This document shows, piece by piece, positions 49,662 through 63,412 of a DNA stretch of 64,000 nucleotides. Source of the stretch: Chitinophaga pinensis (lineage in GTDB: Bacteria > Bacteroidota > Bacteroidia > UKL13-3); assembly GCA_945860865.1 (NCBI GenBank), contig CAMARW010000001.1:62001-126000 (forward strand), in the 5' to 3' direction. Numbering within the stretch: position 1 is the first letter of the stretch; every line of letters starts with the position of its first letter. The notes under the pieces were generated by a model. It saw only the letters and a list, made by a program, of their open reading frames with translations, did not search any database and was not told the origin of the DNA. A program made the position numbers and the translations under genes.

Positions 49662-50417
49662 TTACCACTCTGCCGTTGGGTCGTACCTAAATACTTCGCT
49701 CATTTCTTCTACAAGCGGCCCCAAGTGTTCGGTGTGTAAGCCTTTGCGGCCGCCTAAAACAGGGTTCCAGGTATCGCTGCTAGGTATGCTTAATCCTGCT
49801 TTAAGTAATACAGCACTAATATTGCTAAGCCATTTATCTTGTAGGCTGTCTTCGCCAATAAAGATGTTTTCTGCTATTAAAATATCTTCATGTGTGCTGT
49901 GTTCAAACATACCTAGTGCATAGTTCCAAGCATGGTTGAGAGCGGCTTGCATTCTAGCATGACTTTCTGCATTGGCCGAACCCAATTTAGTTACCCAAGT
50001 ATTTGCATGAAAAACATGGTATTTTAACTCGCCTTTAACCTTGCGTGCTACTTTGGCTAGGGGCTCGTAGCTAGAATTGGCAAGTGCTTCAAAACGCAGC
50101 TGATCTGCATGATCGTATAAGAAATGACGTATTAAGCTAAAATCATATTCGCCATTGGGCAATTCTAATAATTGTGCATTGTGAAACTGATTGGCATTAC
50201 GGGTAAAGGCAACGGTATCGGGTTCTTGTTCTCCTAATTCGTGTAACAATACATACAATGCCTGCGATTGGCCAATTTTATCTTGTGCCATACTGCTAAA
50301 AGAAATATCTTCTTCTAAGATAGGTCCAAGACCCGTCCACTCACTATTTCTATGTCCAATAATAAGCAGGTCGTCGGCCATTTTATAGAGGAGTTCTTTA
50401 ATTGCTTCTGTGTTCAT
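49662..50417 (-). CDS. paaC: Phenylacetyl-CoA epoxidase structural subunit PaaC
   Basis: 251-residue ferritin-like subunit that binds and stabilises PaaA in the 1,2-phenylacetyl-CoA epoxidase. KMADDLLIIGHRNSEWTGLGPILEEDI is the usual start, followed by SQALYVLLHELGE, the RNANQFHN and DFSLIRHFLYDHADQLRFEAL helices and KGELKYHVFHANTWVTKLG. Metal ligands are absent, as in characterised PaaC. It is followed by iaaA and not by paaD. Confidence 0.93.
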   Translation of the reverse strand: MNTEAIKELLYKMADDLLIIGHRNSEWTGLGPILEEDISFSSMAQDKIGQSQALYVLLHELGEQEPDTVAFTRNANQFHNAQLLELPNGEYDFSLIRHFLYDHADQLRFEALANSSYEPLAKVARKVKGELKYHVFHANTWVTKLGSANAESHARMQAALNHAWNYALGMFEHSTHEDILIAENIFIGEDSLQDKWLSNISAVLLKAGLSIPSSDTWNPVLGGRKGLHTEHLGPLVEEMSEVFRYDPTAEW

Positions 50418-50428
50418 GTGTAAATAGA

Positions 50429-50794
50429 TTAAAGGCCTTTTTTGTATTTATTAATCTTGTCCATAACCTTGTATCCACCAGCTTCTCGGTATTGTTTTTC
50501 GGGCACTGTTTCAAAGATATCAGAATCATCGTACTCGGTAGTAAAAACATCGCTAGTTTTTACTACCCAAATATTTACGCTAAGCCCTCTTCTACCAAAC
50601 TGTTCTTTACCAAAAATAAGAGCCATTTCTGCGTTGGGGGCATGAACTATACCCACATGCATGTGTTGATCGCCACGGCGCTTTTGGTGAAACACTTCGT
50701 AGGTTTCCCATTGGTCTAGGTCTTTTAGTGGCTCAATGTTATTATCTGCTTCAATGGCAGCACGGTTTACGCGCGGGTCTAGTGAAATTATCAT
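50429..50794 (-). CDS. paaB: Phenylacetyl-CoA epoxidase subunit PaaB
   Basis: 121-residue small subunit of the phenylacetyl-CoA epoxidase complex. WETYEVFHQKRRGDQHMHVGIVHAP and the MALIFGKEQFGRRG stretch are the conserved core, and the ending with YREAGGYKVMDKINKYKKG is typical. It follows paaA by 13 bp. Confidence 0.93.
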   Translation of the reverse strand: MIISLDPRVNRAAIEADNNIEPLKDLDQWETYEVFHQKRRGDQHMHVGIVHAPNAEMALIFGKEQFGRRGLSVNIWVVKTSDVFTTEYDDSDIFETVPEKQYREAGGYKVMDKINKYKKGL

Positions 50795-50807
50795 GGTTTT
50801 TATTTAA

Positions 50808-51794
50808 TTAAGCCAAAGGTGCAATGTATTTAGACTCGGCTGTATTAAGGGCTTCTCTTACCCATCTGCCGCGTTCCTCTGCATTTCTTCTTACAGCCAA
50901 ACGTTCTGCGTTGCAAGGGCCACCGCCATTAATTACGCGCTTAAATTCTTCCCAATCTGGTTCGGTATAATCCCATTTGCCAGCATCATTTTTCTTTAAG
51001 TTTGGATCAGGTAAGGTTAAACCTAAATCCCAAATTTTGGGCACATACATGTTTAAAAACTGCTGACGCATATCGTCGTTGGTAGCCATTTTCACTTTCC
51101 AGCGCATCAATACTTCGGTATGGTTAGAGATTTTATCGCTAGGACCAAAGAAGTGCATAATTGGAGGCCACCAGCGGGTTAAGGCTGCCTGAACCAACTC
51201 ACGTTGTTTAGGCGTTCCAGTGGCAAGGGTTACTACATTGTCATGTCCGTATTTTAAGTGGAAAGATTCTTCTGTACAAATTCTATCTAAAGCCCGGCAG
51301 TATGGGCCATAACTACCTTTGGCATTGGCAACTTGGTTAATAATGGCACCAGCATCTATTAGCCAAGCAATAATACAGGCATCAGCCCAAGTATAGGCAG
51401 GGTAATTAAACACATTAGAGTATTTAGATTTGCCTGTAATTAAATCATTAATCATGGCTTCCCTGCTTTTGCCCAAGGTTTCTGCTGCACTATATAATAA
51501 TTGAGCATGGCCTACTTCATCTTGCACTTTGGCCATTAAAGCTAGCTTGCGTCTAAAACCAGGCGCGCGGGTAATCCAGGTTCCTTCTGGGAGGGCACCA
51601 ATAATTTCGCTATGGCCATGTTGTTCAATCATACGAATCAACTGTTTGCGATATTCTTTGGGCATCCAATCTTTTGGTTCAATTTTTTCGCCACGTGCAA
51701 TTCGTGCTTCAAATTCAGCCAATTTTTGTGGGTCTTCTCCTGCCAACATCATAGCAGCTTTGTCGTTTGGATCAATGTAAGCGTTTCCGTACAT
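50808..51794 (-). CDS. paaA: Phenylacetyl-CoA epoxidase catalytic subunit PaaA
   Basis: 328-residue di-iron ferritin-like subunit that epoxidises phenylacetyl-CoA. [24 protein letters not shown] and [23 protein letters not shown] hold the glutamate/histidine di-iron ligand helix, and [16 protein letters not shown] the second. The C-terminal [19 protein letters not shown] is conserved. First structural gene of the operon, 33 bp after the TetR gene. paaD and paaE, needed for activity, are not in the window. Confidence 0.95.
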
Positions 51795-53622: not shown

Positions 53623-55347
53623 CTATTTAAACTCATAATTTACACCATAAACTTGAGTTAACAGGGTTTGTGGCGCATCTAAAACAATGGCAGACTGAGG
53701 TAAAACTGGACTAACTGGGGAGTTTTGTTTTAGGTAATCTTTCATAACCGAGTGAAGGGTGTGCGCTGTATTTTTAGCTTCTCTTACATTGCGCATTCTG
53801 CAGAGCATATCTGCTGGGTCGCCATCTCGCTCGCAAGCGCAAATGCTGTATTCTTTTTCAAGTTCTAGGGCTTTACCGCCAATTTCAATGCTTTGCACGC
53901 GTTTGCCCATTTCTTCAAAGGCTTTAAAAGTAACTTTCATGCCTTTAAATTTAATTACCCAACCACCAAAACGCTTTGAGGCATCTTTGGCAAATACATT
54001 GTTTAATTCTTTTTCTAGCCAATCGCTAATCTGTTTGCCGCTTACCTTACCTTTTCGCACGGTGCTATCTACGGGGAGCATATCAAATAAATAACCATTG
54101 GTTATTGGGATATTTCCGGTATGGTCTGGGGTGGTGCGTGGCGGACAAAATCTAAAGCCATTGCTTAGCACAATGTCTATGTCTTTCATTTGCCATTTAA
54201 GGGCATCAAGCACCATGGTATCAATGGTATTTTCTACTACAAAATAGCGATATAGTGGAACGGTGCTATAACCTATTACGTGGTAAATATCTTGGGCAAA
54301 TGGTTTTTCATTGGCTGCAATAAGTTCGTTGATGGCTTTATCGGCTTTTAGTTTGGCCGGACTAATTTCATCAAGCGCATATTTTACATCAATGATTTTG
54401 CCGTTACGTACGCTTAAATCTAACCTGCCTACAAAAGAGCCAAACGCGCCTGGTTCAACTACCTTAGCATATTTGCATTCTATGGGTACACGCACGCGCT
54501 CGTGGGTATCACCACCTAAAATGTAATCTACGCCCGCACATTCTGCTGAGTTGGCTAGGGCAATTTGCTGCGATAAACCTAAATGCGAGAGCACTATTAC
54601 AAAGGCACATTGTTCATGGTTGCGTAAAACATCTACGTAATGTGCAATATTTTCTTCTGGTTTGGTGTATATAATTCCTTTGCTATAATTAGGAGATTGC
54701 CTAATGGGAACCAATGGGTCTGTGTAACCCAAGAAGCCAATTTTTATTCCAGCTACCTGCCATATATAATAGGGATGAAAGATATGCTCACCTTTTTTAC
54801 CATCGCCTAAATCGTGGTACATATTGGCACAAACCTTTGGGGCATGGAGCGAACCAAGTAAGGTTTGCATGGCTTTTTTATAATAGATTACTTCCCAATT
54901 TCCAGGAAGGTATAAATCGTAACTGAGTTCATTTAAGATGGGCGCTATGGCTTTACCGGTAGTTTTTACAGAAAGCTCACTGCCTTGAAACATATCGCCT
55001 GTATCAACAAAAAAGGTATTCGGATTCTTCTTTCTTTGCTGCTTTATATAGGTAGCAAGGTGGGCGTAACCGCCTGTTTGGCGAAAAACTGATTGGCCGT
55101 TTTCCCAAAATAATTCATCATGTGGATGCACCTGGCAATGCACATCTGTAGATTGTAAAATAGATACTATTTGGGTTTTTTCTTTGCTGGATTTAACATC
55201 CGAACCAACAAACTCGGTTTCACTGGGCACAGCGGCCTCAGCTAATTCTCCTGCACCAAGAAGTAAGCCACTTCCAGCACTAAGTATGCCTAGTTTTTTA
55301 AGGAATCCTCTTCTGCTTTTTTCGTTTGCTAAGTTTTCTTGGTTCAT
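53623..55347 (-). CDS. soxB-like: SoxB-like thiosulfohydrolase/metallophosphatase, Tat-exported
   Basis: 574 residues of the 5'-nucleotidase/SoxB family. Twin-arginine signal SRRGFLKKLG at 11-20; metallophosphatase N-domain with STDVHCQVHPH (D68, H70), FVDTGDMFQGS (D115), PGNWEV (residues 149-153), VLSHLGLSQ and GGDTHERV; C-terminal 5-nucleotidase domain from about 340 to 540. The tryptophan in GNWE matches SoxB (usually GHWE) and not ordinary nucleotidases (GNHE). SoxB releases sulfate from a cysteine-S-sulfonate on SoxYZ in the periplasm. The carrier is not encoded here. Last gene of the sulfur operon. Confidence 0.78.
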   Translation of the reverse strand: MNQENLANEKSRRGFLKKLGILSAGSGLLLGAGELAEAAVPSETEFVGSDVKSSKEKTQIVSILQSTDVHCQVHPHDELFWENGQSVFRQTGGYAHLATYIKQQRKKNPNTFFVDTGDMFQGSELSVKTTGKAIAPILNELSYDLYLPGNWEVIYYKKAMQTLLGSLHAPKVCANMYHDLGDGKKGEHIFHPYYIWQVAGIKIGFLGYTDPLVPIRQSPNYSKGIIYTKPEENIAHYVDVLRNHEQCAFVIVLSHLGLSQQIALANSAECAGVDYILGGDTHERVRVPIECKYAKVVEPGAFGSFVGRLDLSVRNGKIIDVKYALDEISPAKLKADKAINELIAANEKPFAQDIYHVIGYSTVPLYRYFVVENTIDTMVLDALKWQMKDIDIVLSNGFRFCPPRTTPDHTGNIPITNGYLFDMLPVDSTVRKGKVSGKQISDWLEKELNNVFAKDASKRFGGWVIKFKGMKVTFKAFEEMGKRVQSIEIGGKALELEKEYSICACERDGDPADMLCRMRNVREAKNTAHTLHSVMKDYLKQNSPVSPVLPQSAIVLDAPQTLLTQVYGVNYEFK

Positions 55348-55366: not shown

Positions 55367-56785
55367 TTAAAAATGATAATTGAGCACAAGGTTGTATAAA
55401 GACATATTTACCTTATTAATGACGTTTCTGTTGTTTTCATAGGTATTACCCAAATTGCCTTTGTAAACGTACAAAAATTGTCCTTCTAATCCACTTAAAA
55501 AACCTTTGAAATTATATCTTACATCTACATTTCCCTGAAAATAGGAGGGCATAGCGTATTTATTATGAGCCACATTCATAATATCTGGGAGGTAATAATG
55601 ACCATAAGCCACTTCTATTTTTAAACCCTGCTTGGGCCAAACTTTATTGCTTACTAGGTTCATGGCATGCACGTCGGCAAAGCCCTCATTGCGTTCTCTG
55701 GCCATAAAGGTAAAGAAAGGATCGCGGCCCCATTCGCGTGGCATGAGGTATCTTCCATCTTTGGTTATGCGGTTATAGTTGGCAAATATTTGCCAGTTTT
55801 TATTTTCTTCTAAACCCAATCTAAAGCCAAATGTGCGGGCTAAATTTCCGCTTTTTACATAACTTAAGTTGGGATTTACATTACCACCATTACCTACAGC
55901 ATGTTGCTGTATGTATTGTGCGCCATAGAAAATACTTTTGTTTTGGTTCAGCCCAAATTGGCCAGTTAATTGGGCAAATGAGCTATTTATAACTTGGTCT
56001 ACGTGCTGATTTAAAACTTGCAATTTGGCTTTAAAAGGAAGTTGTAGGGTGGCGCTTGCGAGGTATATGGCGCTGCTATTTACGTTACCAGGATATTGCG
56101 ATTTTTTTCCATCTAGGCCTATGCCAGCAGGGAAAATCGACATTGACTCGCCAATACCATAATAATTTACAGTGCTGCGTGGCGATATGCCAAAAATATA
56201 AGCAGCTTCTAGTTTAAGGTGTTTTATTTCGTTTAGCTCAAGCAAGGCACCTTCTATCAATGTGGGGCGCATTCTGCCATCTTGTGGGTTTAAAAACGGA
56301 CTTCTTATATGTTGTTTACCCAATTTAACATGAGATGCTTTGAACGAATATTTGAGGTATAAATCTTCTAGCCGGTCCATATCTCGTTTGTTTTTTGGGT
56401 TGGTCATATCAAATTGGCCAATTTCGTATCGGCTACCTATACCCGTAGAGGCATCTGTTTTGGTAAAATCGGAGGAGGCAAGATTGTAGATAAAAAAGCC
56501 GCTAATGCCTATCTGAAAGCCTTTAAATTGGCCTGTTTCATATCCAATTCCCATACCAAAAGCATTGGCATAAAAATCTTTTAAATCACCTGCATTATCG
56601 GTAGCCATAAAATAATAACGTGCATGCCCATAAAACTCTCCATTTCTAAAAAAGGCTTGTAAGGTACTTGTGTCTTTTTTGTTTTTGCTGCGTTCTGTAT
56701 GGTGCAAGTATGGTTGTGCTACTTGTGCGGCCAGTTTTTGGCCTACGAGCAATCCAACAAATAATATAATAGCAAGTCTCTTCAC
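55367..56785 (-). CDS. Outer membrane porin, OprD-like
   Basis: 472 residues with signal peptide (ends KLAAQ) and a porin barrel. EFYGHARYYFMATDNAG at the N-terminus and the RYLMPREWGRDPFFTFMARERNEG loop resemble the OprD-family porins seen in epsilonproteobacteria and Bacteroidetes. It ends in LYNLVLNYHF. Position between the DsrE-like and SoxB-like genes, 3 and 19 bp apart, suggests entry of thiosulfate or similar anions. Confidence 0.75.
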   Translation of the reverse strand: MKRLAIILFVGLLVGQKLAAQVAQPYLHHTERSKNKKDTSTLQAFFRNGEFYGHARYYFMATDNAGDLKDFYANAFGMGIGYETGQFKGFQIGISGFFIYNLASSDFTKTDASTGIGSRYEIGQFDMTNPKNKRDMDRLEDLYLKYSFKASHVKLGKQHIRSPFLNPQDGRMRPTLIEGALLELNEIKHLKLEAAYIFGISPRSTVNYYGIGESMSIFPAGIGLDGKKSQYPGNVNSSAIYLASATLQLPFKAKLQVLNQHVDQVINSSFAQLTGQFGLNQNKSIFYGAQYIQQHAVGNGGNVNPNLSYVKSGNLARTFGFRLGLEENKNWQIFANYNRITKDGRYLMPREWGRDPFFTFMARERNEGFADVHAMNLVSNKVWPKQGLKIEVAYGHYYLPDIMNVAHNKYAMPSYFQGNVDVRYNFKGFLSGLEGQFLYVYKGNLGNTYENNRNVINKVNMSLYNLVLNYHF

Positions 56786-56788
56786 AGG

Positions 56789-57229
56789 TTAAAATCCAGC
56801 TTTAATATAGGTCCAACCTTGCTCTTGTTTTTCTACAATTTCGCCAATGCCCATTTTTACAAATTGCATATCGGGCAACATAGATTCTTTGGCTACTTTT
56901 CTTTCCTTGAGTGAGTTTTCGCAAACCACAAAAACAATTCCTTTTTCTTTGAGGGCATATATTTCGTCTTTAAAGCCAGTTTTTTCTGCACTTAAAAAAT
57001 CTATTCCGGGTCCATGGCAAACCACTTCTATTTTTACCGTTTCGCCCCAACCTTCTTTGAGGTTATTGAGTTGTTTTACCAAGCCCTTATGCACGGCTGC
57101 ATCGTTGGATGTAAGTTGCATAATAATTTGGTGTTTTTTCTTTTTGCCTGCCTTTTTTTGCGCCTGTGCAAAGGGCGCACTTAAGCCTACTAGAAGCAGG
57201 CTAAGTATAAATATTTTAAACGTTTTCAT
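56789..57229 (-). CDS. DsrE-family sulfur-carrier protein with signal peptide
   Basis: 146 residues: MKTFKIFILSLLLVGLSAPFAQAQ is a signal peptide, then a basic KKKAGKKKKH stretch, and a DsrE/F-like fold (IIMQLTSNDAAVHKGLVKQL, IEVVCHGPGIDFL with Cys71, GIVFVVCENSLKERKV with Cys103). Cys103 falls at the position of the persulfide-bearing cysteine of DsrE. Most DsrE proteins are cytoplasmic, so export is unusual; relatives with signal peptides lie beside sox/tsd genes. It may hold sulfane sulfur in the periplasm. Gap to neighbours is 3 bp on both sides. Confidence 0.78.
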   Translation of the reverse strand: MKTFKIFILSLLLVGLSAPFAQAQKKAGKKKKHQIIMQLTSNDAAVHKGLVKQLNNLKEGWGETVKIEVVCHGPGIDFLSAEKTGFKDEIYALKEKGIVFVVCENSLKERKVAKESMLPDMQFVKMGIGEIVEKQEQGWTYIKAGF

Positions 57230-57232
57230 TGT

Positions 57233-58231
57233 TTAAGTTGTTTTATTTTTTTTCATCTCGGCCCGCTTGGCTTTAATAGGTTTAAACGGACCAAGCTTAT
57301 GTTGTTTTTCTGAGAAACCATCGGCAAATGGTCCGAAAGGATGATCTATGGGTTTGCCAGCTATATTGGGCCAATCTTTGCTCAAATTTTTGCTAGGTCT
57401 GGCTTGTGTATTAACAAAAGCGGCCACGTCCCAAGCTTCTTCATCTGTAAGAATGGGGGCATTATGGCTAGCACCAAGCGGCATATTTGCTTTTACGTAC
57501 CCAGCAAACCTAGAAAGCCGGTATAAACCAGCGCCATCATTGTAACTATTTTTTCCCCAAAGTGGCGGAAAAGCATAACTTTTTTTGTCGCTACTAAGTA
57601 AACCTTCCCCATTGGCTTGGTGGCAACTTTGGCATTTGGATTCATAAACCACTTGGCCTTTTTCTGTGCTTGCTTCGCGGTCTAAAAAAGCCAATTCTAT
57701 TATGCCACTACCAACAGGTTTGTCTCCCTTAATTATGCCTGAACCTAGCCATTTAATATAACTTACAATGGCTATCATTTCTTTGCTTTGTGTATCTAAG
57801 GCTTGCCCGTTGAGGCTGCGTTCAAAGCAATCATTTACCCTTTTAGGAATGGTTTCTAATGAGCCAGAGCGTTCTCTAAATTTGGGATAGGTGCTGTAAA
57901 CGGCTGCATAATTATTTCCCCAGGCTTTAGTACCCGCTTCTAGGTGGCAATTTTGGCAATTCATGCCGTTGCTAATGGATTTAACACTTCCTTTTGGCCC
58001 CAAATACAAAGCAGTATTTTGAATGAGTTCTTTACCGTATAAAATCTCTGAGGCATTTGCTTCCTGATTTATTAAATTTTCCTCTGGAGCTTGCCATAAA
58101 TCAGTGGTATTATTTAGTTTATTTGCCTCAAGTTTTGGTTCAGCCAGTGGAGTATTTTTATACGTATTAAATACAGTTATGGCAACAGTTATTAATAGTG
58201 CAAGCACTAAAAAGATTTTTAAGTAACGCAT
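57233..58231 (-). CDS. tsdA-like: TsdA-like dihaem thiosulfate dehydrogenase
   Basis: 332-residue exported c-type cytochrome. An N-terminal membrane anchor or signal (MRYLKIFLVLALLITVAITV) is followed by two haem motifs: C92-QN-C95-H96 and C200-QS-C203-H204. Matches to TsdA are strong: YLGPKGSV, NCQNCHLEAGT, FRERSGSLETI, RVNDCFERS with the putative axial Cys135 of haem 1, FPPLWGKNSYNDGAGLYRL, ANMPLG with Met250 likely ligating haem 2, and GPFADGFSEKQHKLGPFKPI. TsdA oxidises thiosulfate to tetrathionate, and in some bacteria works in reverse. The residue before Met250 is Asn, as I recall for the Campylobacter enzyme, which favours either direction. Confidence 0.82.
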   Translation of the reverse strand: MRYLKIFLVLALLITVAITVFNTYKNTPLAEPKLEANKLNNTTDLWQAPEENLINQEANASEILYGKELIQNTALYLGPKGSVKSISNGMNCQNCHLEAGTKAWGNNYAAVYSTYPKFRERSGSLETIPKRVNDCFERSLNGQALDTQSKEMIAIVSYIKWLGSGIIKGDKPVGSGIIELAFLDREASTEKGQVVYESKCQSCHQANGEGLLSSDKKSYAFPPLWGKNSYNDGAGLYRLSRFAGYVKANMPLGASHNAPILTDEEAWDVAAFVNTQARPSKNLSKDWPNIAGKPIDHPFGPFADGFSEKQHKLGPFKPIKAKRAEMKKNKTT

Positions 58232-58252: not shown

Positions 58253-58663
58253 TTAATGAGGTAATTTGGGCTTAAAATAGCCATATAACCAAGTGCCTAA
58301 AAGTGCGCTAGCAATAACTACCAGAATGGTTGTATAACCAGCGCCAACTAACGCGTAAAGTGGTCCCGGACAAGCGCCAGAAAGGGCCCAACCCATTCCA
58401 AAAATAGTTCCACCAATTATTTGTCCTTTGCTAAATTGTTTATCTACAATAAGAATTTCTTCTCCTTCGATAGATTTTACCTTAAACTTTTTAATGAGCC
58501 AAATAGATAACATGCCCACAGCAATGGCTGAACCAATGATACCATACATATGGAAACTTTGAAAGCGAAACATTTCTTGAATTCTGAACCAAGATACAGC
58601 TTCTGTTTTGGTAAGTACAGTTCCAAAAAGCACACCTATTAATAAGAATTTTATGTTTTTCAT
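58253..58663 (-). CDS. YeeE/YedE-type thiosulfate transporter, small half (DUF6691)
   Basis: 136 residues with four membrane spans; FGMGWALSGACPGPLYALVGAG holds Cys98, a conserved cysteine of the YeeE/YedE (TsuA) family. It is the C-terminal half of the transporter, made as a separate polypeptide. The N-terminal half is the gene 14 bp upstream. TsuA moves thiosulfate by relay between cysteines; the pair together has about 323 residues, close to a full-length TsuA. Confidence 0.8.
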   Translation of the reverse strand: MKNIKFLLIGVLFGTVLTKTEAVSWFRIQEMFRFQSFHMYGIIGSAIAVGMLSIWLIKKFKVKSIEGEEILIVDKQFSKGQIIGGTIFGMGWALSGACPGPLYALVGAGYTTILVVIASALLGTWLYGYFKPKLPH

Positions 58664-58677
58664 TTAGTATGCTTGGT

Positions 58678-59241
58678 TTATAATTGATAAATAAAAGGAG
58701 CTATGAAGTGGGTCATTAATAAGCCACCAATAAAGAAGAAAATAACTGCTACCAAAGAAGGCCATTGGAGGCTAGAAATACCCATAATGGCGTGACCAGA
58801 GGTGCAACCACCTGCATACCTTGAGCCAAAACCTATCATAATACCACCCAAAACCATAATGAGTATGCCTTTAATTGAAAACAAGGTTTGCCAGTTAAAA
58901 ATATCTGCCGGAATTAAACCTTCAAAAGATTGGATGCCCATGGCTTGAATATCTGCTATGGTAGCTTCAGAGATTTTAACGGCTTCGCCGTTGTTTAGCA
59001 ATACTCCGCCCACAAATCCGCCGAGGAAAATACCTGCAACAAAAAACAAGTTCCACATTTCAGATTTCCAATTGTACTTTAGAAAGGCAATATTAAAGGG
59101 AGCAACAGCAGCGCAGGTATGCCTTAGCGACGATGATATGCCCAACATCTTGTTTCCAAGAATGAGGAGTAATGGGATAGATATCCCAATAATAGGGCCA
59201 CTAACATACCAAGGCCAAGGTTCTTTTAATAATTCTAGCAT
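58678..59241 (-). CDS. YeeE/YedE-type thiosulfate transporter, large half
   Basis: 187 residues with five predicted membrane spans. RHTCAAVAPF (Cys43) and the RYAGGCTSGHAIMG motif (Cys146) are the signature of YeeE/YedE sulfur transporters. It begins one base after the Usp gene and is followed by the small half. Substrate thiosulfate by homology to TsuA. Confidence 0.84.
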   Translation of the reverse strand: MLELLKEPWPWYVSGPIIGISIPLLLILGNKMLGISSSLRHTCAAVAPFNIAFLKYNWKSEMWNLFFVAGIFLGGFVGGVLLNNGEAVKISEATIADIQAMGIQSFEGLIPADIFNWQTLFSIKGILIMVLGGIMIGFGSRYAGGCTSGHAIMGISSLQWPSLVAVIFFFIGGLLMTHFIAPFIYQL

Positions 59242-59242
59242 A

Positions 59243-60082
59243 TTATTTTTTTAATTTAAAAGTTAAGATTGGTTTGTAGGCATGGTTTACTAAATCAGCC
59301 GATACACAACCATTGATAAGTTTATTTAAGCCTGTTCTTTGCCAACTGCCTATGCATATAATATCAATGTTTTCTTTGGCTACATAACTTACAATACCAT
59401 CTTCTACATTTTCGTCGTTGTAAATTGCCATTTCTACATTATGTAAATCATTATTGTTAACAAAAGCGCTCATATTATTAAGCACTTTTCCATCGGCCAT
59501 AAAATCATTGGGTGTGTTAATGCGCAGCAAGTACAACTTGGCATTTAATGCTTTTTGCAAAGCCAGTGCCATAGCAACATCCGGTATATCATCTGTTTTA
59601 AAACTACTAGCAATTACTATAGATTTTACCTCCATATCTGATCTATCACACTTGAGTGTCATAACTGGGGCACTGCTATGCATCGCAATATATTCGCCGT
59701 GGGTATGATTAAACAATTCTGGTGCTCCAGAAACGGTGTGTGTGCCCATAATTATTAAATCTATACTATGGTTTTTGGCGTAGTTTAAAACACTTTCATT
59801 TACATGTCCAAATACGCAATCAGTTTTGGCTAAGGGCGCATATGTAGCTTGCCAGCTAGGCATTTTTTCTTGGGCGGCTTTCAGTTTTTCTTTGGGTATA
59901 CTGGTATCAAAATCGCCATCTTCAAAGAGGTTTCCATCTTCTGTGAGTAAGATGTGTGAGGGCAAATTAATAACGTGTAGAAAATGAATTTCTGCCTTTA
60001 AAAAGGACGCAATTTTTGCAGCCAAACTGCTGCCATAAGCAGAGGTATGACTAAAATCTGTGGGCACTAAAATTTTTTGCAT
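59243..60082 (-). CDS. Tandem universal stress protein
   Basis: 279 residues with two UspA-like domains (1-145 and 152-279). The first begins MQKILVPTDFSHTSAYGSSLAAKIAS and has IIMGTHTVSGAPELFNHTHGEYIAM, while the second has VKSIVIASSFKTDD and IICIGSWQRTGLNKLINGC. The ATP-binding Gx2Gx9G(S/T) loop is partial. First gene of the downstream seven-gene unit; its link to sulfur metabolism is only by position. Confidence 0.82.
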   Translation of the reverse strand: MQKILVPTDFSHTSAYGSSLAAKIASFLKAEIHFLHVINLPSHILLTEDGNLFEDGDFDTSIPKEKLKAAQEKMPSWQATYAPLAKTDCVFGHVNESVLNYAKNHSIDLIIMGTHTVSGAPELFNHTHGEYIAMHSSAPVMTLKCDRSDMEVKSIVIASSFKTDDIPDVAMALALQKALNAKLYLLRINTPNDFMADGKVLNNMSAFVNNNDLHNVEMAIYNDENVEDGIVSYVAKENIDIICIGSWQRTGLNKLINGCVSADLVNHAYKPILTFKLKK

Positions 60083-60137: not shown

Positions 60138-61562
60138 TTATAATAAGGTTGAAGGACAAACGTATGCTGAAACTTGAAACTTTTCAGAATCTTTGATGGC
60201 TTTAAATCCGCCGTCTACATCTATTAAGTTATCATAACCTCTGGCTCTTAAGATAGAGGCAAAAATCATAGACCTATAACCGCCAGCACAATGTACAAAG
60301 TATGTTTTAGCTTTATCTATTTTTAACATGCTCTCGTTGATGTAATCAAGCGGTGCATTGGTAGCGTTAAGGATGTGTTCTGATTGATATTCGCTATTTT
60401 TTCTAACATCTAAGATATTTATGCTTGGGTCTGCGGTTTCTGCTGCGGCAAATTCTGCTACCGAAATAGACTTTATGGTATCTACTTCTTTGCCTGCTTT
60501 TTGCCAAGCTTCAAAACCACCTTCAATAAAACCTATAGCGTGATCGTAGCCAACGCGAGCCAAACGGGTAACAACTTCCATTTCTCTGCCTACTTCTGCT
60601 ACCAATAATATTTCTTGTTTAATATCTGGAATTAAGTTTCCAACCCAAGGAGCAAAACCACCATCAATACCAATGTTTATTGAATTTGGAATAAATCCTT
60701 TGGCAAAATCTTGGGGTTTACGTGTATCTAAAATTAAGGCACTTGTTTCGTTGGCTGCGGCTTCAAATCCATCTGGTGTTAGGGCGTGTGTGCCTCGCTC
60801 TAATACCTCTTCAATGCTATCGTATCCTTCAATGTTCATCATTACATTTTTAGGAAAATAAGCAGGTGGCGGCATTAAACCTGTAATAACTTCTTTGATA
60901 AACTCTTCTTTGCTCATGTTGGCACGCAAAGCATAGTTTGTTGCTTTTTGGTTGCCAAGTGTATCGAAGGTTTCTTTGCTCATGTTTTTTCCGCAGGCAG
61001 AACCTGCACCATGAGCAGGGTAAACAATTAAATCATCGTTTAACGGCATGATCTTGTTACGCAACGAATCAAATAAATAACCAGCCAGCATATCTTGGGT
61101 TAAATCTTCAACAACTTTTTGGGCTAAATCTGGTCTGCCCACATCGCCAATAAACAGGGTATCTCCAGTGAATATAGCAGTTTGTTTGCCGTTTTCATCT
61201 GTTAGCAAATAGCACGAGCTTTCTAGGGTATGACCGGGAGTGTGTAGTAATTTAAAAGTAATACTACCTACTTTAAATTCTTGTCCGTCTGCAGCAATAA
61301 GGGCATCAAAACCCATTTTCATTTCGGTTGGACCAAATACAATTTGTGCGCCTGTTTCTTTGGCTAAATCAACATGTCCGGATACAAAATCTGCGTGAAA
61401 ATGCGTTTCAAAAACGTACTTTATTTTTGCGCCACTGGCTGCTGCGCGTTCCATATATGGCGTAGTTTCACGCAATGGATCAATTACTACTGCTTCGCCA
61501 TTTGATTCTATGTAGTAGGCACCTTGTGCCAAACATCCTGTGTAAATTTGTTCTATTTTCAT
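60138..61562 (-). CDS. CstB-like persulfide dioxygenase with two rhodanese domains
   Basis: 474 residues. The N-terminal metallo-beta-lactamase domain has the persulfide-dioxygenase-type metal site: FETHFHADFVSGH (H54, H56, D58), HTPGHTLES (H111), FTGDTLFIGDVGRPD (D134) and YPAHGAG. A middle rhodanese-like domain (residues 265-360) has EVGRE in the active-site loop and no cysteine, and a C-terminal rhodanese (365-474) has FVHCAGGYRS with Cys425. This dioxygenase-pseudorhodanese-rhodanese order is that of CstB of Staphylococcus aureus, which turns low-molecular-weight persulfides into thiosulfate. Cytoplasmic. Confidence 0.86.
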   Translation of the reverse strand: MKIEQIYTGCLAQGAYYIESNGEAVVIDPLRETTPYMERAAASGAKIKYVFETHFHADFVSGHVDLAKETGAQIVFGPTEMKMGFDALIAADGQEFKVGSITFKLLHTPGHTLESSCYLLTDENGKQTAIFTGDTLFIGDVGRPDLAQKVVEDLTQDMLAGYLFDSLRNKIMPLNDDLIVYPAHGAGSACGKNMSKETFDTLGNQKATNYALRANMSKEEFIKEVITGLMPPPAYFPKNVMMNIEGYDSIEEVLERGTHALTPDGFEAAANETSALILDTRKPQDFAKGFIPNSINIGIDGGFAPWVGNLIPDIKQEILLVAEVGREMEVVTRLARVGYDHAIGFIEGGFEAWQKAGKEVDTIKSISVAEFAAAETADPSINILDVRKNSEYQSEHILNATNAPLDYINESMLKIDKAKTYFVHCAGGYRSMIFASILRARGYDNLIDVDGGFKAIKDSEKFQVSAYVCPSTLL

Positions 61563-61647: not shown

Positions 61648-62442
61648 CTATAAGAATAGTTCTTTAGCTATAATATATAATCCCATTACCAGTACAAACC
61701 AGCCAAATCCCTTTTTAAGTTTGGCGCCATCAATTTTTAGCGATAGATAATTGCCCAAGAAAATACCAGCAATGGCAATACTAGAAACAATGAGTAGTAG
61801 GTTCCAATTCATTTCAAAATGCCCCAAATCTCCAGTAAAACCAATGAGTGATTTGGCGGCAATAATGAGCAAAGAAGTACCCACTGCTTCTTTCATTGGC
61901 AAGCCCGTAAATAGCACAAGGGCAGGTATAATTAAAAATCCACCTCCCGCACCTACTAGTCCGGTAAGCATACCTACAATAGCTCCTTCTAATAATATCA
62001 TGGGGTAATTAAATTTTTGCGCAACATCTTTTTGGTTCGAACCAACTTTTTGATCTCTTATCATGCTAACAGAGGCAAACACCATGAGTACGGCAAAAAG
62101 CAGCATCATTAGTATACTTTTTGTTATCATTAGGCCACCCACTGTAAAAAGTTCTGTAGGTATGGCAGGCACTAAAAATTTTCTGGTAAGGTAAACAGCA
62201 ATAATAGAAGGGATGCCAAAAATGAGGGCTGTTTTTAAATTTACTAGGCCTTGTTTATATTTTGGATAGGCACCAACAAGTGCTGTTGAACCTACAATAA
62301 AAAGCGAATAGGCTGTAGCTTCTACGGCGTTTACGCCCAAAAGATAAACCAATACGGGTACTGTTAAGATAGAGCCGCCACCGCCAATTAAGCCCAATGA
62401 AATACCTATTAAGGCAGATGCTAAATAACCTATTATTTCCAT
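61648..62442 (-). CDS. TauE/SafE-family exporter
   Basis: 264 residues and about eight membrane spans. SALIGISLGLIGGGGSILTVPVLVYLLG and VGMLTGLVGAGGGFLIIPALVL, one in each half, are the two repeats typical of TauE/SafE anion exporters. A central cytoplasmic loop (SMIRDQKVGSNQKDV) lies between the two halves. In cst-type loci a TauE protein is thought to export sulfite or thiosulfate. It lies 73 bp after the Crp-family gene. Confidence 0.85.
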   Translation of the reverse strand: MEIIGYLASALIGISLGLIGGGGSILTVPVLVYLLGVNAVEATAYSLFIVGSTALVGAYPKYKQGLVNLKTALIFGIPSIIAVYLTRKFLVPAIPTELFTVGGLMITKSILMMLLFAVLMVFASVSMIRDQKVGSNQKDVAQKFNYPMILLEGAIVGMLTGLVGAGGGFLIIPALVLFTGLPMKEAVGTSLLIIAAKSLIGFTGDLGHFEMNWNLLLIVSSIAIAGIFLGNYLSLKIDGAKLKKGFGWFVLVMGLYIIAKELFL

Positions 62443-62515: not shown

Positions 62516-63151
62516 TTATTTGAGTAATTCTACTGCATTTCTATGTAGCTTCACTTTATTTTGGGTTTCCATTTGTTTTAAGAGCCTCGAAATAACTACC
62601 CGAGAGGAGTTTAAATCATTGGCTATTTGCTCGTGTGTAAGTGGAATGAGTTTGCTGCTGAAGGCGTTTTTTTGCTTAACTAAATAATACGATAATCGTT
62701 CGTCCATGCTATGAAAAGCAACGCTTCTGATAACATCCAGTAATTCTCTGAACCGCGATCTGTATGTTTCGAGCACAAAATAATACCACGACTTATTTTT
62801 AATCATCAATTCGTCCATTAAATCGATGGGTATTAAAATGGCTTCGGTATCTTCTATAACGGTGGCATCTAAATCGCTTCTTTTGTTTTTTTGTGCGCAA
62901 ACAAAACTCAGTGCGCAGGCTTGTCCGGGCTCCAGGTAATACATAAAAAATTCTTCGCCCTCATCACCTTCCGAAAGCAATTTCACCCTTCCTTTGGTAA
63001 TAAGCATGGTATATTTTAAAAACGCACCTTGTTGCATTATGGTTTCTCCCGATTTAAAACGCTGCATACGACCATTGGCAATGATTAAACTTTTTAATTC
63101 ATTGTCAAATTGTGGATAGTGAACGTCTAAGTTTTCCTTGATAGATTCCAT
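62516..63151 (-). CDS. Crp/Fnr-family transcriptional regulator
   Basis: 211 residues from ATG 63151 (MESIKENLDVHYPQFDNEL), chosen over longer in-frame starts because the cyclic-nucleotide-binding fold begins there. Residues 25-130 form a cNMP-like sensor domain (FKSGETIMQQGAFLKYTMLITKGRVKLL), with one cysteine at CALSFVCA, and the C-terminal helix-turn-helix (LTHEQIANDLNSSRVVISRLLKQME). Heads the sulfur cluster; relatives sense redox or sulfur compounds in some bacteria, though not all. Confidence 0.86.
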   Translation of the reverse strand: MESIKENLDVHYPQFDNELKSLIIANGRMQRFKSGETIMQQGAFLKYTMLITKGRVKLLSEGDEGEEFFMYYLEPGQACALSFVCAQKNKRSDLDATVIEDTEAILIPIDLMDELMIKNKSWYYFVLETYRSRFRELLDVIRSVAFHSMDERLSYYLVKQKNAFSSKLIPLTHEQIANDLNSSRVVISRLLKQMETQNKVKLHRNAVELLK

Positions 63152-63412
63152 ATAATGAATGCAAATTAGGCAATTTTTCATTATTATTAAGAAATTACAA
63201 GAAGAAGCTTTCGTTGGAATAGCTATTGTCAAAACTTATTTGCATTCCTAAAAATTAATCTGCAAGAAAAGCATGCCTTTAGGCCATATAATGGGTTAAA
63301 TTTGAAATGAAAACCCATCAAATAGGTTTTAACTATTTGTTAGAAAAAAAGTAAAATGAAATCACTTTACTAAAGAAAGATAGAACTTGAACAAGCTTTT
63401 TGGTTCAATAAA

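What the first reader, a model, noticed from the sequence alone, without database searches (positions are those of the whole stretch)
56789..57229. Exported DsrE protein as a possible SoxYZ substitute
A DsrE-family protein with a clear signal peptide and Cys103 at the persulfide position sits 3 bp from both the TsdA-like and porin genes, in an operon with a SoxB-like hydrolase but no SoxYZ. It could carry the cysteine-bound sulfur that SoxB acts upon. This is inference; the chemistry is unproven.
Basis: inference. Interest (0 to 1): 0.62.

Follow-up and report, generated by a model that had tools for sequence, protein, structure and literature searches.

The report
Optional exported DsrE in thiosulfate operon
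A small exported sulfur-binding protein sits in a Bacteroidota operon that probably oxidises thiosulfate through tetrathionate without the usual SoxYZ carrier, but close relatives keep the same operon without it, so it looks like an optional helper rather than the missing carrier.

Summary
The gene is as described: a 146-aa DsrE-family protein with an export-type N-terminus, Cys103 at the persulfide position, and 3-bp gaps to the TsdA and porin genes. SoxY and SoxZ were not found in this genome (99.9% complete) nor in 65 related genomes with the SoxB-like hydrolase, while a control genome rang.

The "SoxYZ substitute" reading is only partly supported. DsrE is strongly linked to the SoxB-like/TsdA module, but the module occurs without it. 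In the window's family all 7 genomes with DsrE have the SoxB-like gene, yet 10 of 17 with the SoxB-like gene lack this DsrE, including same-genus relatives with the same TsdA-porin-SoxB order. A SoxYZ-free TsdA+SoxB pathway acting on tetrathionate is published (Erythrobacter flavus).

Best reading: a Bacteroidota TsdA/SoxB-like tetrathionate route in which DsrE is an accessory periplasmic sulfur relay. A bolder version remains open: DsrE3A of Metallosphaera cuprina takes thiosulfonate from tetrathionate onto its cysteines, so where this DsrE occurs its adduct could be a substrate of the SoxB-like enzyme. That enzyme is itself unusual (changed metal-ligand motif, invariant cysteines). No reaction was tested here.

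The parts
56789..57229 (-). DsrE-family protein, 146 aa, Sec-type export signal by eye, Cys71 and Cys103; proposed accessory periplasmic sulfur relay
57233..58231 (-). TsdA-like dihaem cytochrome c (thiosulfate dehydrogenase); CxxCH at 92 and 200; Cys135 in the DCFERSLNG block shared with TsdA 4wqc
   Evidence: (E 1.3e-47 to 4wqc)
55367..56785 (-). OprD-type outer-membrane porin, GTG start, 3 bp from DsrE
53623..55347 (-). SoxB-like metallohydrolase (SBL), SRRGFLK Tat-like N-terminus, GNWE motif, GDTH instead of GHTH, NGFRFC, Cys505 and Cys516
58253..58663 (-). half-size YeeE/YedE-type transporter (Sulf_transp; PmpA/PmpB-like half)
58678..59241 (-). half-size YeeE/YedE-type transporter, other half
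59243..60082 (-). tandem universal stress protein, in some related operons only
60138..61562 (-). metallo-beta-lactamase-fold, persulfide-dioxygenase-like protein with two rhodanese domains
61648..62442 (-). TauE/SafE-family exporter
62516..63232 (-). Crp/Fnr-family regulator at the head of the operon

Best explanation
The operon encodes a SoxYZ-free thiosulfate oxidation route. TsdA couples two thiosulfates to tetrathionate in the periplasm. The SoxB-like hydrolase (SBL) cuts sulfate off a terminal sulfonate, leaving sulfane sulfur. Sulfur crosses the inner membrane through the split YeeE transporter, the dioxygenase/rhodanese protein oxidises it to sulfite, and TauE exports the sulfite. The exported DsrE is an accessory: its Cys103 picks up sulfane sulfur or a thiosulfonate group in the periplasm and passes it on (to SBL, a rhodanese or YeeE), improving yield or preventing loss as elemental sulfur, but TsdA and SBL work without it. 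Shown here: gene content, SoxY and SoxZ not found, linkage, module occurring without DsrE, conserved residues. Inferred: every reaction and every sulfur hand-over.
For: In 395 class genomes, strong SBL in 53 and strong DsrE (over 100 bits) in 33: both in 26, SBL only in 27, DsrE only in 7, neither in 335 (Fisher p 7e-20, not corrected for relatedness); in 22 of the 26 the two lie within 3 kb. Own family: SBL in 17 of 64, DsrE in 7 of 64, all 7 inside the 17 (Fisher 3e-5). Same-genus G004, G008, G014 and G017 keep TsdA-porin-SBL without DsrE; in G004 TsdA ends with the same ten residues as in the window and runs straight into the porin. TsdA lies within the fetched flanks of SBL in 50 of 57 DsrE loci that have SBL and in 19 of the 27 DsrE-less SBL loci. 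SoxY not found in 53 of 53 SBL genomes nor in 13 further ones, SoxZ in 0 of 66; control G491 rings in each. SBL model's best PDB match is SoxB of the SoxB-SoxYZ complex 4uwq. Published precedent: in E. flavus, whose genome lacks most Sox genes, tsdA and soxB mutants lose sulfur formation, and a tsdA mutant still makes sulfur from added tetrathionate (PMC7608252: abstract, sections 15 and 16, passages; PMC9426585: passages). The first paper also reports tsdA+soxB in Bacteroidetes.
Against: No activity is known to me for any of these Bacteroidota proteins. SBL scores 250.8 bits against a SoxB cut-off of 550, has a changed metal-ligand motif and falls outside the SoxB branch, so its substrate may differ from that of E. 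flavus SoxB. SBL has no TsdA within the fetched flanks in 8 of 27 DsrE-less loci, two of them cut short by contig ends. Genomes lacking this DsrE may use another carrier: 9 of the 27 have some PF02635 protein, exported-looking in 6 (G155, G186, G207, G297, G321, G333), each on another contig than SBL; a divergent exported DsrE-like ORF lies beside SBL in L148-L150, and G001 has an exported-looking one elsewhere. Several genomes are incomplete (54 of 67 at least 90% complete). Dispensability is read from gene content, not from a mutant.
Confidence: 0.55

Rival explanations
1. DsrE is a true functional counterpart of SoxYZ where it occurs: tetrathionate from TsdA reacts with Cys103 to give DsrE-Cys-S-S-SO3, SBL removes sulfate from this adduct, and the persulfide left on DsrE is passed on.
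For: DsrE3A of Metallosphaera cuprina forms Cys-S-thiosulfonate with tetrathionate (PMC4175335, section 23). SoxYZ was treated with tetrathionate to give the thiosulfonate adduct in vitro (PMC5336275, passages). DsrE, TsdA and SBL are tightly linked. SBL keeps the Trp of the SoxB (G/S)HWE motif, and in the disulfide-linked SoxB-SoxYZ complex 4uwq that position aligns as Cys. SoxY and SoxZ not found.
Against: SBL without this DsrE is as common as with it in the class, and occurs in the same genus. No fixed SBL difference between DsrE+ and DsrE- rows of clade A (35 and 10 rows). Cys103 is also invariant in 14 loci with no SBL, TsdA, porin or YeeE match within the fetched flanks and in the PDB relatives 2pd2 and 1l1s, so it is a family feature. 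Two DsrE genes also follow an annotated soxB that has soxZ next to it in Methylosinus.
Confidence: 0.25
2. DsrE is a periplasmic scavenger or detoxifier of persulfide/polysulfide, unrelated to SBL catalysis and merely co-transcribed.
For: Solo exported-type DsrE loci exist (14 of 80, some on short contigs), as do class genomes with DsrE but no strong SBL (7 of 33; of these G354, G291 and G216 show no TsdA, porin or YeeE match nearby). A single rhodanese gene with an export-type N-terminus is a frequent neighbour (26 of 80 loci).
Against: In the own family DsrE was never found without SBL (0 of 47).
Confidence: 0.12
3. The SoxB-like gene is an ordinary 5'-nucleotidase, as annotated in relatives, and the cluster is not a thiosulfate pathway.
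For: Annotated as bifunctional metallophosphatase/5'-nucleotidase in Runella; the two Pfam domains are those of 5'-nucleotidases. SBL has no TsdA within the flanks in 8 of 27 DsrE-less loci.
Against: Trp stands at the His of the GNHD motif in 84 of 84 SBL rows, as in 5 of 5 SoxB rows; but 8 of 11 other hydrolase rows also have Trp there, so this alone does not separate them. TsdA adjoins in most loci. E. flavus SoxB carried the same annotation yet is needed for sulfur formation from thiosulfate (PMC7608252, section 16 and passages).
Confidence: 0.06

Closest known systems
TsdA-SoxB-SDO thiosulfate oxidation pathway of Erythrobacter flavus 21-3 (PMC7608252, PMC9426585)
   Same: TsdA, SoxB-type hydrolase annotated as 5'-nucleotidase, and a dioxygenase/rhodanese protein in one cluster; Sox complex absent; tsdA+soxB reported in Bacteroidetes by those authors
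   Different: The window adds an exported DsrE, split YeeE, porin and TauE; SBL is a separate lineage with its own Cys and metal-motif changes. Whether E. flavus SoxB is closer to SBL or to the HWEF group was not tested. DsrE does not occur in the main text of either paper
Sox system (SoxXA, SoxYZ, SoxB)
   Same: SoxB fold, Trp motif and Tat-like N-terminus; TsdA shares the SoxA/TsdA domain PF21342
   Different: SoxY and SoxZ not found; SBL below the SoxB equivalog cut-off; DsrE has no SoxY domain
DsrE3A/TusA of Metallosphaera cuprina (PMC4175335)
   Same: DsrE-family protein whose Cys can hold thiosulfonate from tetrathionate
   Different: [quoted passage not shown] no TusA was recognised among the ten operon proteins scanned, the genome was not searched for it
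DsrE-like proteins of solved structure MTH1491 (1l1s) and ST0148 (2pd2)
   Same: Same fold (TM-score by target 0.95 and 0.87), Cys at the same position (CSNT/CENS)
   Different: Described as protein of unknown function / conserved hypothetical; chains of 113 and 108 residues, without the window protein's N-terminal extension

Membership tests
DsrE/DsrF-like family (PF02635) | Profile match over the curated cut-off | tested here: met
   43.9 bits vs 22.7
DsrE/DsrF-like family (PF02635) | Fold | tested here: met
   AlphaFold2 pLDDT 93.7; best PDB matches 1l1s, 2pd2, DsrEFH chains further down
DsrE/DsrF-like family (PF02635) | Conserved persulfide-position Cys | tested here: met
   Cys103 in 86 of 86 sequences; its chemistry not testable here
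SoxYZ carrier | SoxY domain with carrier Cys on a C-terminal arm, paired with SoxZ | tested here: not met
   Only Pfam match is DsrE; Cys103 lies 43 residues before the end; no SoxY or SoxZ found. That SoxY bears a C-terminal GGCGG arm is recalled
SoxYZ carrier | Accompanies the SoxB-type hydrolase | tested here: not met
   In 26 of 53 SBL genomes of the class and 7 of 17 of the family
SoxYZ carrier | Forms Cys-thiosulfonate that SoxB hydrolyses | not testable with these tools
   Needs purified proteins
SoxB (TIGR04486 equivalog) | Score over the curated cut-off | tested here: not met
   250.8 bits vs 550
SoxB (TIGR04486 equivalog) | Trp at the His of the GNHD motif | tested here: met
   84 of 84 SBL rows, 5 of 5 SoxB rows, but also 8 of 11 other rows; catalytic role of the His recalled
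SoxB (TIGR04486 equivalog) | GHTH motif | tested here: not met
   Asp at the first His in 83 of 84 SBL rows; His in 5 of 5 SoxB and 11 of 11 other rows; metal-ligand role recalled
SoxB (TIGR04486 equivalog) | Groups with SoxB in a tree | tested here: not met
   SBL one clade (100/100) apart from 5 SoxB rows; long branches flagged
TsdA thiosulfate dehydrogenase | SoxA/TsdA and cytochrome c domains, two CxxCH, Cys in the DCFERSLNG block | tested here: met
TsdA-SoxB-SDO pathway | TsdA, SoxB-type hydrolase and dioxygenase together without SoxYZ | tested here: met
   the hydrolase is SoxB-like, not an equivalog
TsdA-SoxB-SDO pathway | Tetrathionate turned into sulfate and zero-valent sulfur | not testable with these tools
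   Needs cultures or enzymes

The most novel reading that the evidence does not exclude
A carrier-bound Sox-like cycle built from unrelated parts. TsdA supplies tetrathionate, the exported DsrE holds the thiosulfonate on Cys103 in place of SoxY, and a SoxB-like enzyme with its own invariant cysteines removes sulfate. In genomes that lack DsrE the enzyme's own thiols (Cys401, Cys505, Cys516) do the same job. This would mean protein-bound thiosulfate oxidation evolved twice.
Probability: 0.2. Interest if true: 0.75.

Novelty: new variant of a known kind. Interest (0 to 1): 0.5.

Why it matters
The SoxB-like gene is in 53 of 395 sampled genomes of the class and, with TsdA, DsrE and porin, on a Runella plasmid where it is annotated as a nucleotidase beside a DsrE-family protein. 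Thiosulfate oxidation in this heterotroph phylum may therefore be under-counted. The operon offers a natural experiment: sister genomes with and without DsrE around the same TsdA/SoxB-like pair. It makes testable whether a SoxB-type enzyme can work on free tetrathionate or needs a protein carrier.

Tried and rejected
Cys71 as a second active thiol of the carrier: rejected as a general feature, because it is in only 47 of 86 and the sample is biased towards it. DsrE required by SBL: rejected by genomes without it. Clade-A SBL residues that separate DsrE+ from DsrE- loci: none at 80% in both groups (35 and 10 rows). SoxYZ hidden elsewhere in the genome: not found; the first search had a silent control, so it was repeated with a control that rang. 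Natural fusion of DsrE: only the long DsrE frame of G151 was looked at; it is upstream read-through that overlaps SBL in another frame. Distances from the SBL cysteines to the metal site: no coordinates are given out. One search repeated, because the order holds the same 64 genomes.

Rows dropped before counts: G157 (142-aa fragment with two stops) and G335 (75-aa fragment) were not counted as SBL, nor hits of about 32% identity or less, 17 of 50 matching genomes under about 100 bits were not counted as strong DsrE; SBL rows with 450 or fewer aligned residues were left out; one search kept 80 of 183 loci; the tree used 14 clade-A and 14 clade-B loci plus 19 other rows; the alignments for structure used 46 of 53 SBL and 61 of 80 DsrE references besides the window. 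In one search four or five minus-strand loci were read in the wrong strand and were read again.

I lowered the best explanation from 0.57 to 0.55 and raised the nucleotidase rival from 0.04 to 0.06.

Full report
What is there. The ORF at 56789-57229 (-) encodes 146 aa with a Sec-type hydrophobic N-terminus and cysteines at 71 and 103. It matches Pfam DsrE over the cut-off. Its predicted structure (pLDDT 93.7) fits MTH1491 and ST0148 best and DsrEFH chains less well. Cys103 ends strand 99-103 and Cys71 ends strand 65-71. The gene is 3 bp from TsdA and 3 bp from the porin, whose start is GTG. The order along the - strand is Crp, TauE, dioxygenase/rhodanese, USP, YeeE half, YeeE half, TsdA, DsrE, OprD, SoxB-like.

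Is it more than chance? Yes. A scan of genomes with names gave 183 relatives, of which the best 80 were kept. Of these 80 loci, 50 have both TsdA and the SoxB-like hydrolase (SBL) within the flanks, 16 have some of the module and 14 have none; several flanks are cut by contig ends. Frequent other neighbours are a single rhodanese (26 loci), a thioredoxin-like protein (15 loci) and a flavoprotein resembling sulfide:quinone reductase (8 loci) (these names are mine, from sequence). In 395 genomes of the class, strong SBL and strong DsrE co-occur far beyond chance (26 both, 27 SBL only, 7 DsrE only) and lie within 3 kb in 22 of the 26; in the other four they are 11 to 31 kb apart or on different contigs.

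Is SoxYZ missing? SoxY was sought in the own genome with a silent control, then in 296 genomes of the phylum, where 35 ring. It was not found in 53 of 53 SBL genomes of the class sample while control G491 rings, nor in 13 further SBL genomes of the family with the same control. SoxZ was not found in any of these 66, with the control ringing. Some of the genomes are incomplete (54 of 67 are at least 90% complete); the own genome is 99.9% complete.

Is DsrE the substitute? The gene-content test says it is not needed. In the class 27 of 53 SBL genomes lack a strong match to it; two of these, G155 and G186, have weak ones. In the own family 10 of 17 lack it, while 0 of 47 genomes without SBL have it. 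G004, G008, G014 and G017, of the same genus, keep TsdA-OprD-SBL with no gene between TsdA and OprD. In G004 TsdA ends with the same ten residues as in the window, and its stop appears to overlap the porin start. In 7 of the 10 family genomes no DsrE domain was found at E up to 0.1 (G004, G014, G018, G030, G037, G060, G062). G008 and G001 have one of a cytoplasmic-looking kind, G001 also an exported-looking one on another contig than SBL, and G017 a match under the cut-off in a 952-aa frame.

Results against this. Among the 27 class genomes, 9 have some PF02635 protein; in 6 of them (G155, G186, G207, G297, G321, G333) at least one looks exported and in 3 (G008, G319, G367) it looks cytoplasmic; the exported-looking ones lie on other contigs than SBL. 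A divergent exported DsrE-like ORF sits beside SBL in L148, L149 and L150; its family was judged by eye. So another DsrE may stand in for it in some genomes, though none was visible in the seven listed above.

What is the SoxB-like protein? It is below the SoxB equivalog cut-off (250.8 of 550 bits), yet SoxB is its best relative of known structure by sequence and by model (pLDDT 86.6; best match 4uwq). All 84 SBL rows have Trp at the His of GNHD, as do 5 of 5 SoxB rows and 8 of 11 other hydrolase rows. Unlike both, 83 of 84 have Asp at the first His of GHTH. Cys505 and Cys516 are in 84 of 84 and Cys401 in 79 of 84, against 0 of 5 SoxB and 0 of 11 others. In a tree of 47 rows SBL is one clade (100/100), apart from SoxB, with long branches flagged. 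Its N-terminus SRRGFLK looks like a Tat signal. Whether these cysteines form a disulfide or act on sulfur is open. TsdA lies within the fetched flanks of SBL in 50 of 57 DsrE loci with SBL and in 19 of 27 DsrE-less loci; six of the eight exceptions have flanks of about 9 kb or more and their genomes were not searched for TsdA. The porin is in only 5 of these 27.

How it most likely works. Published work on Erythrobacter flavus, whose genome lacks most Sox genes, shows that TsdA makes tetrathionate and SoxB is needed to turn it into sulfate and zero-valent sulfur, with dioxygenases downstream (PMC7608252: abstract, sections 15 and 16 and passages read). A tsdA mutant still made sulfur from added tetrathionate (PMC9426585, passages). 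The window operon has parts of the same kinds. DsrE then has room for two roles: accepting sulfane sulfur after hydrolysis, or being loaded by tetrathionate before it. The second has a precedent: DsrE3A of Metallosphaera cuprina gains one thiosulfonate on each of two cysteines from tetrathionate and reacted with none of five other compounds tested (PMC4175335, section 23), and SoxYZ adducts are made with tetrathionate in vitro (PMC5336275, passages). Short YeeE proteins are proposed to act as a PmpA/PmpB pair (PMC11582611, passages). I put the accessory relay first because TsdA and SBL are found without DsrE, and keep the carrier reading as the main rival.

What is known. The pathway type is known, and tsdA+soxB are reported in Bacteroidetes (PMC7608252, passages). 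The exported DsrE within it was not found in print: searches paired DsrE or SoxB with TsdA, signal peptide, YeeE, OprD, tetrathionate or Bacteroidetes/Flavobacteriales terms, in an open-licence library only, and I opened only seven papers. DsrE has 0 occurrences in the main text of both E. flavus papers.

Verdict. Observation confirmed; interpretation partly supported; new variant of a known kind. Interest 0.5: the presence/absence pattern and the odd SoxB-like enzyme make an assumed carrier requirement directly testable, but nothing shows the DsrE-SoxB reaction.

Noticed in passing
window 53623-55347 (-): The SoxB-like protein has invariant Cys505 and Cys516 and near-invariant Cys401 beside the NGFR block, absent from the SoxB and other hydrolase rows compared: a possible built-in thiol or a disulfide.
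   Followed up: partly
L183 757-13190; L192 630-18697; L191 8015-18680: Runella slithyformis plasmid pRUNSL04 carries the module with DsrE. Pontibacter akesuensis Paks1 carries SBL, a DsrE and HWEF-type hydrolases; a Hymenobacter sp. NBH84 plasmid has porin and DsrE with an HWDF-type hydrolase instead of SBL. Transfer between Bacteroidota is likely.
   Followed up: partly
L189 3603-6642: Methylosinus trichosporium plasmid pOB3b1 has soxZ, soxB and then two exported-looking DsrE genes and a DUF302 gene: DsrE beside an annotated soxB with a SoxZ.
   Followed up: partly
L193 10342-19376; L188 2356-5591 and 32667-35776: A second group of hydrolases with an HWEF motif, annotated as 5'-nucleotidases, sits with sulfur genes (Novosphingobium) or pairs of c-type cytochromes (Bradyrhizobium) on plasmids; it may include the Erythrobacter flavus SoxB type (not tested).
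   Followed up: partly
L148 1533-2024; L149 10640-11092; L150 10606-11034: A divergent exported DsrE-like ORF with two Cys lies beside the SoxB-like gene where the usual DsrE is missing; family judged by eye.
   Followed up: no
L128, L129, L131 (SBL at about 9 kb): SBL of 67-69% identity next to a different c-type cytochrome and no TsdA within the fetched flanks: another pairing of the same hydrolase.
   Followed up: no
window 60138-61562 (-): The first rhodanese domain of the dioxygenase fusion seems to lack the active Cys while the second has HCAGGYRS, an arrangement I recall from CstB-type proteins.
   Followed up: no
window 49662-51794 (-): Three adjacent genes look to me like phenylacetyl-CoA epoxidase subunits, with a TetR-like regulator next to them; names recalled, not tested.
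   Followed up: no
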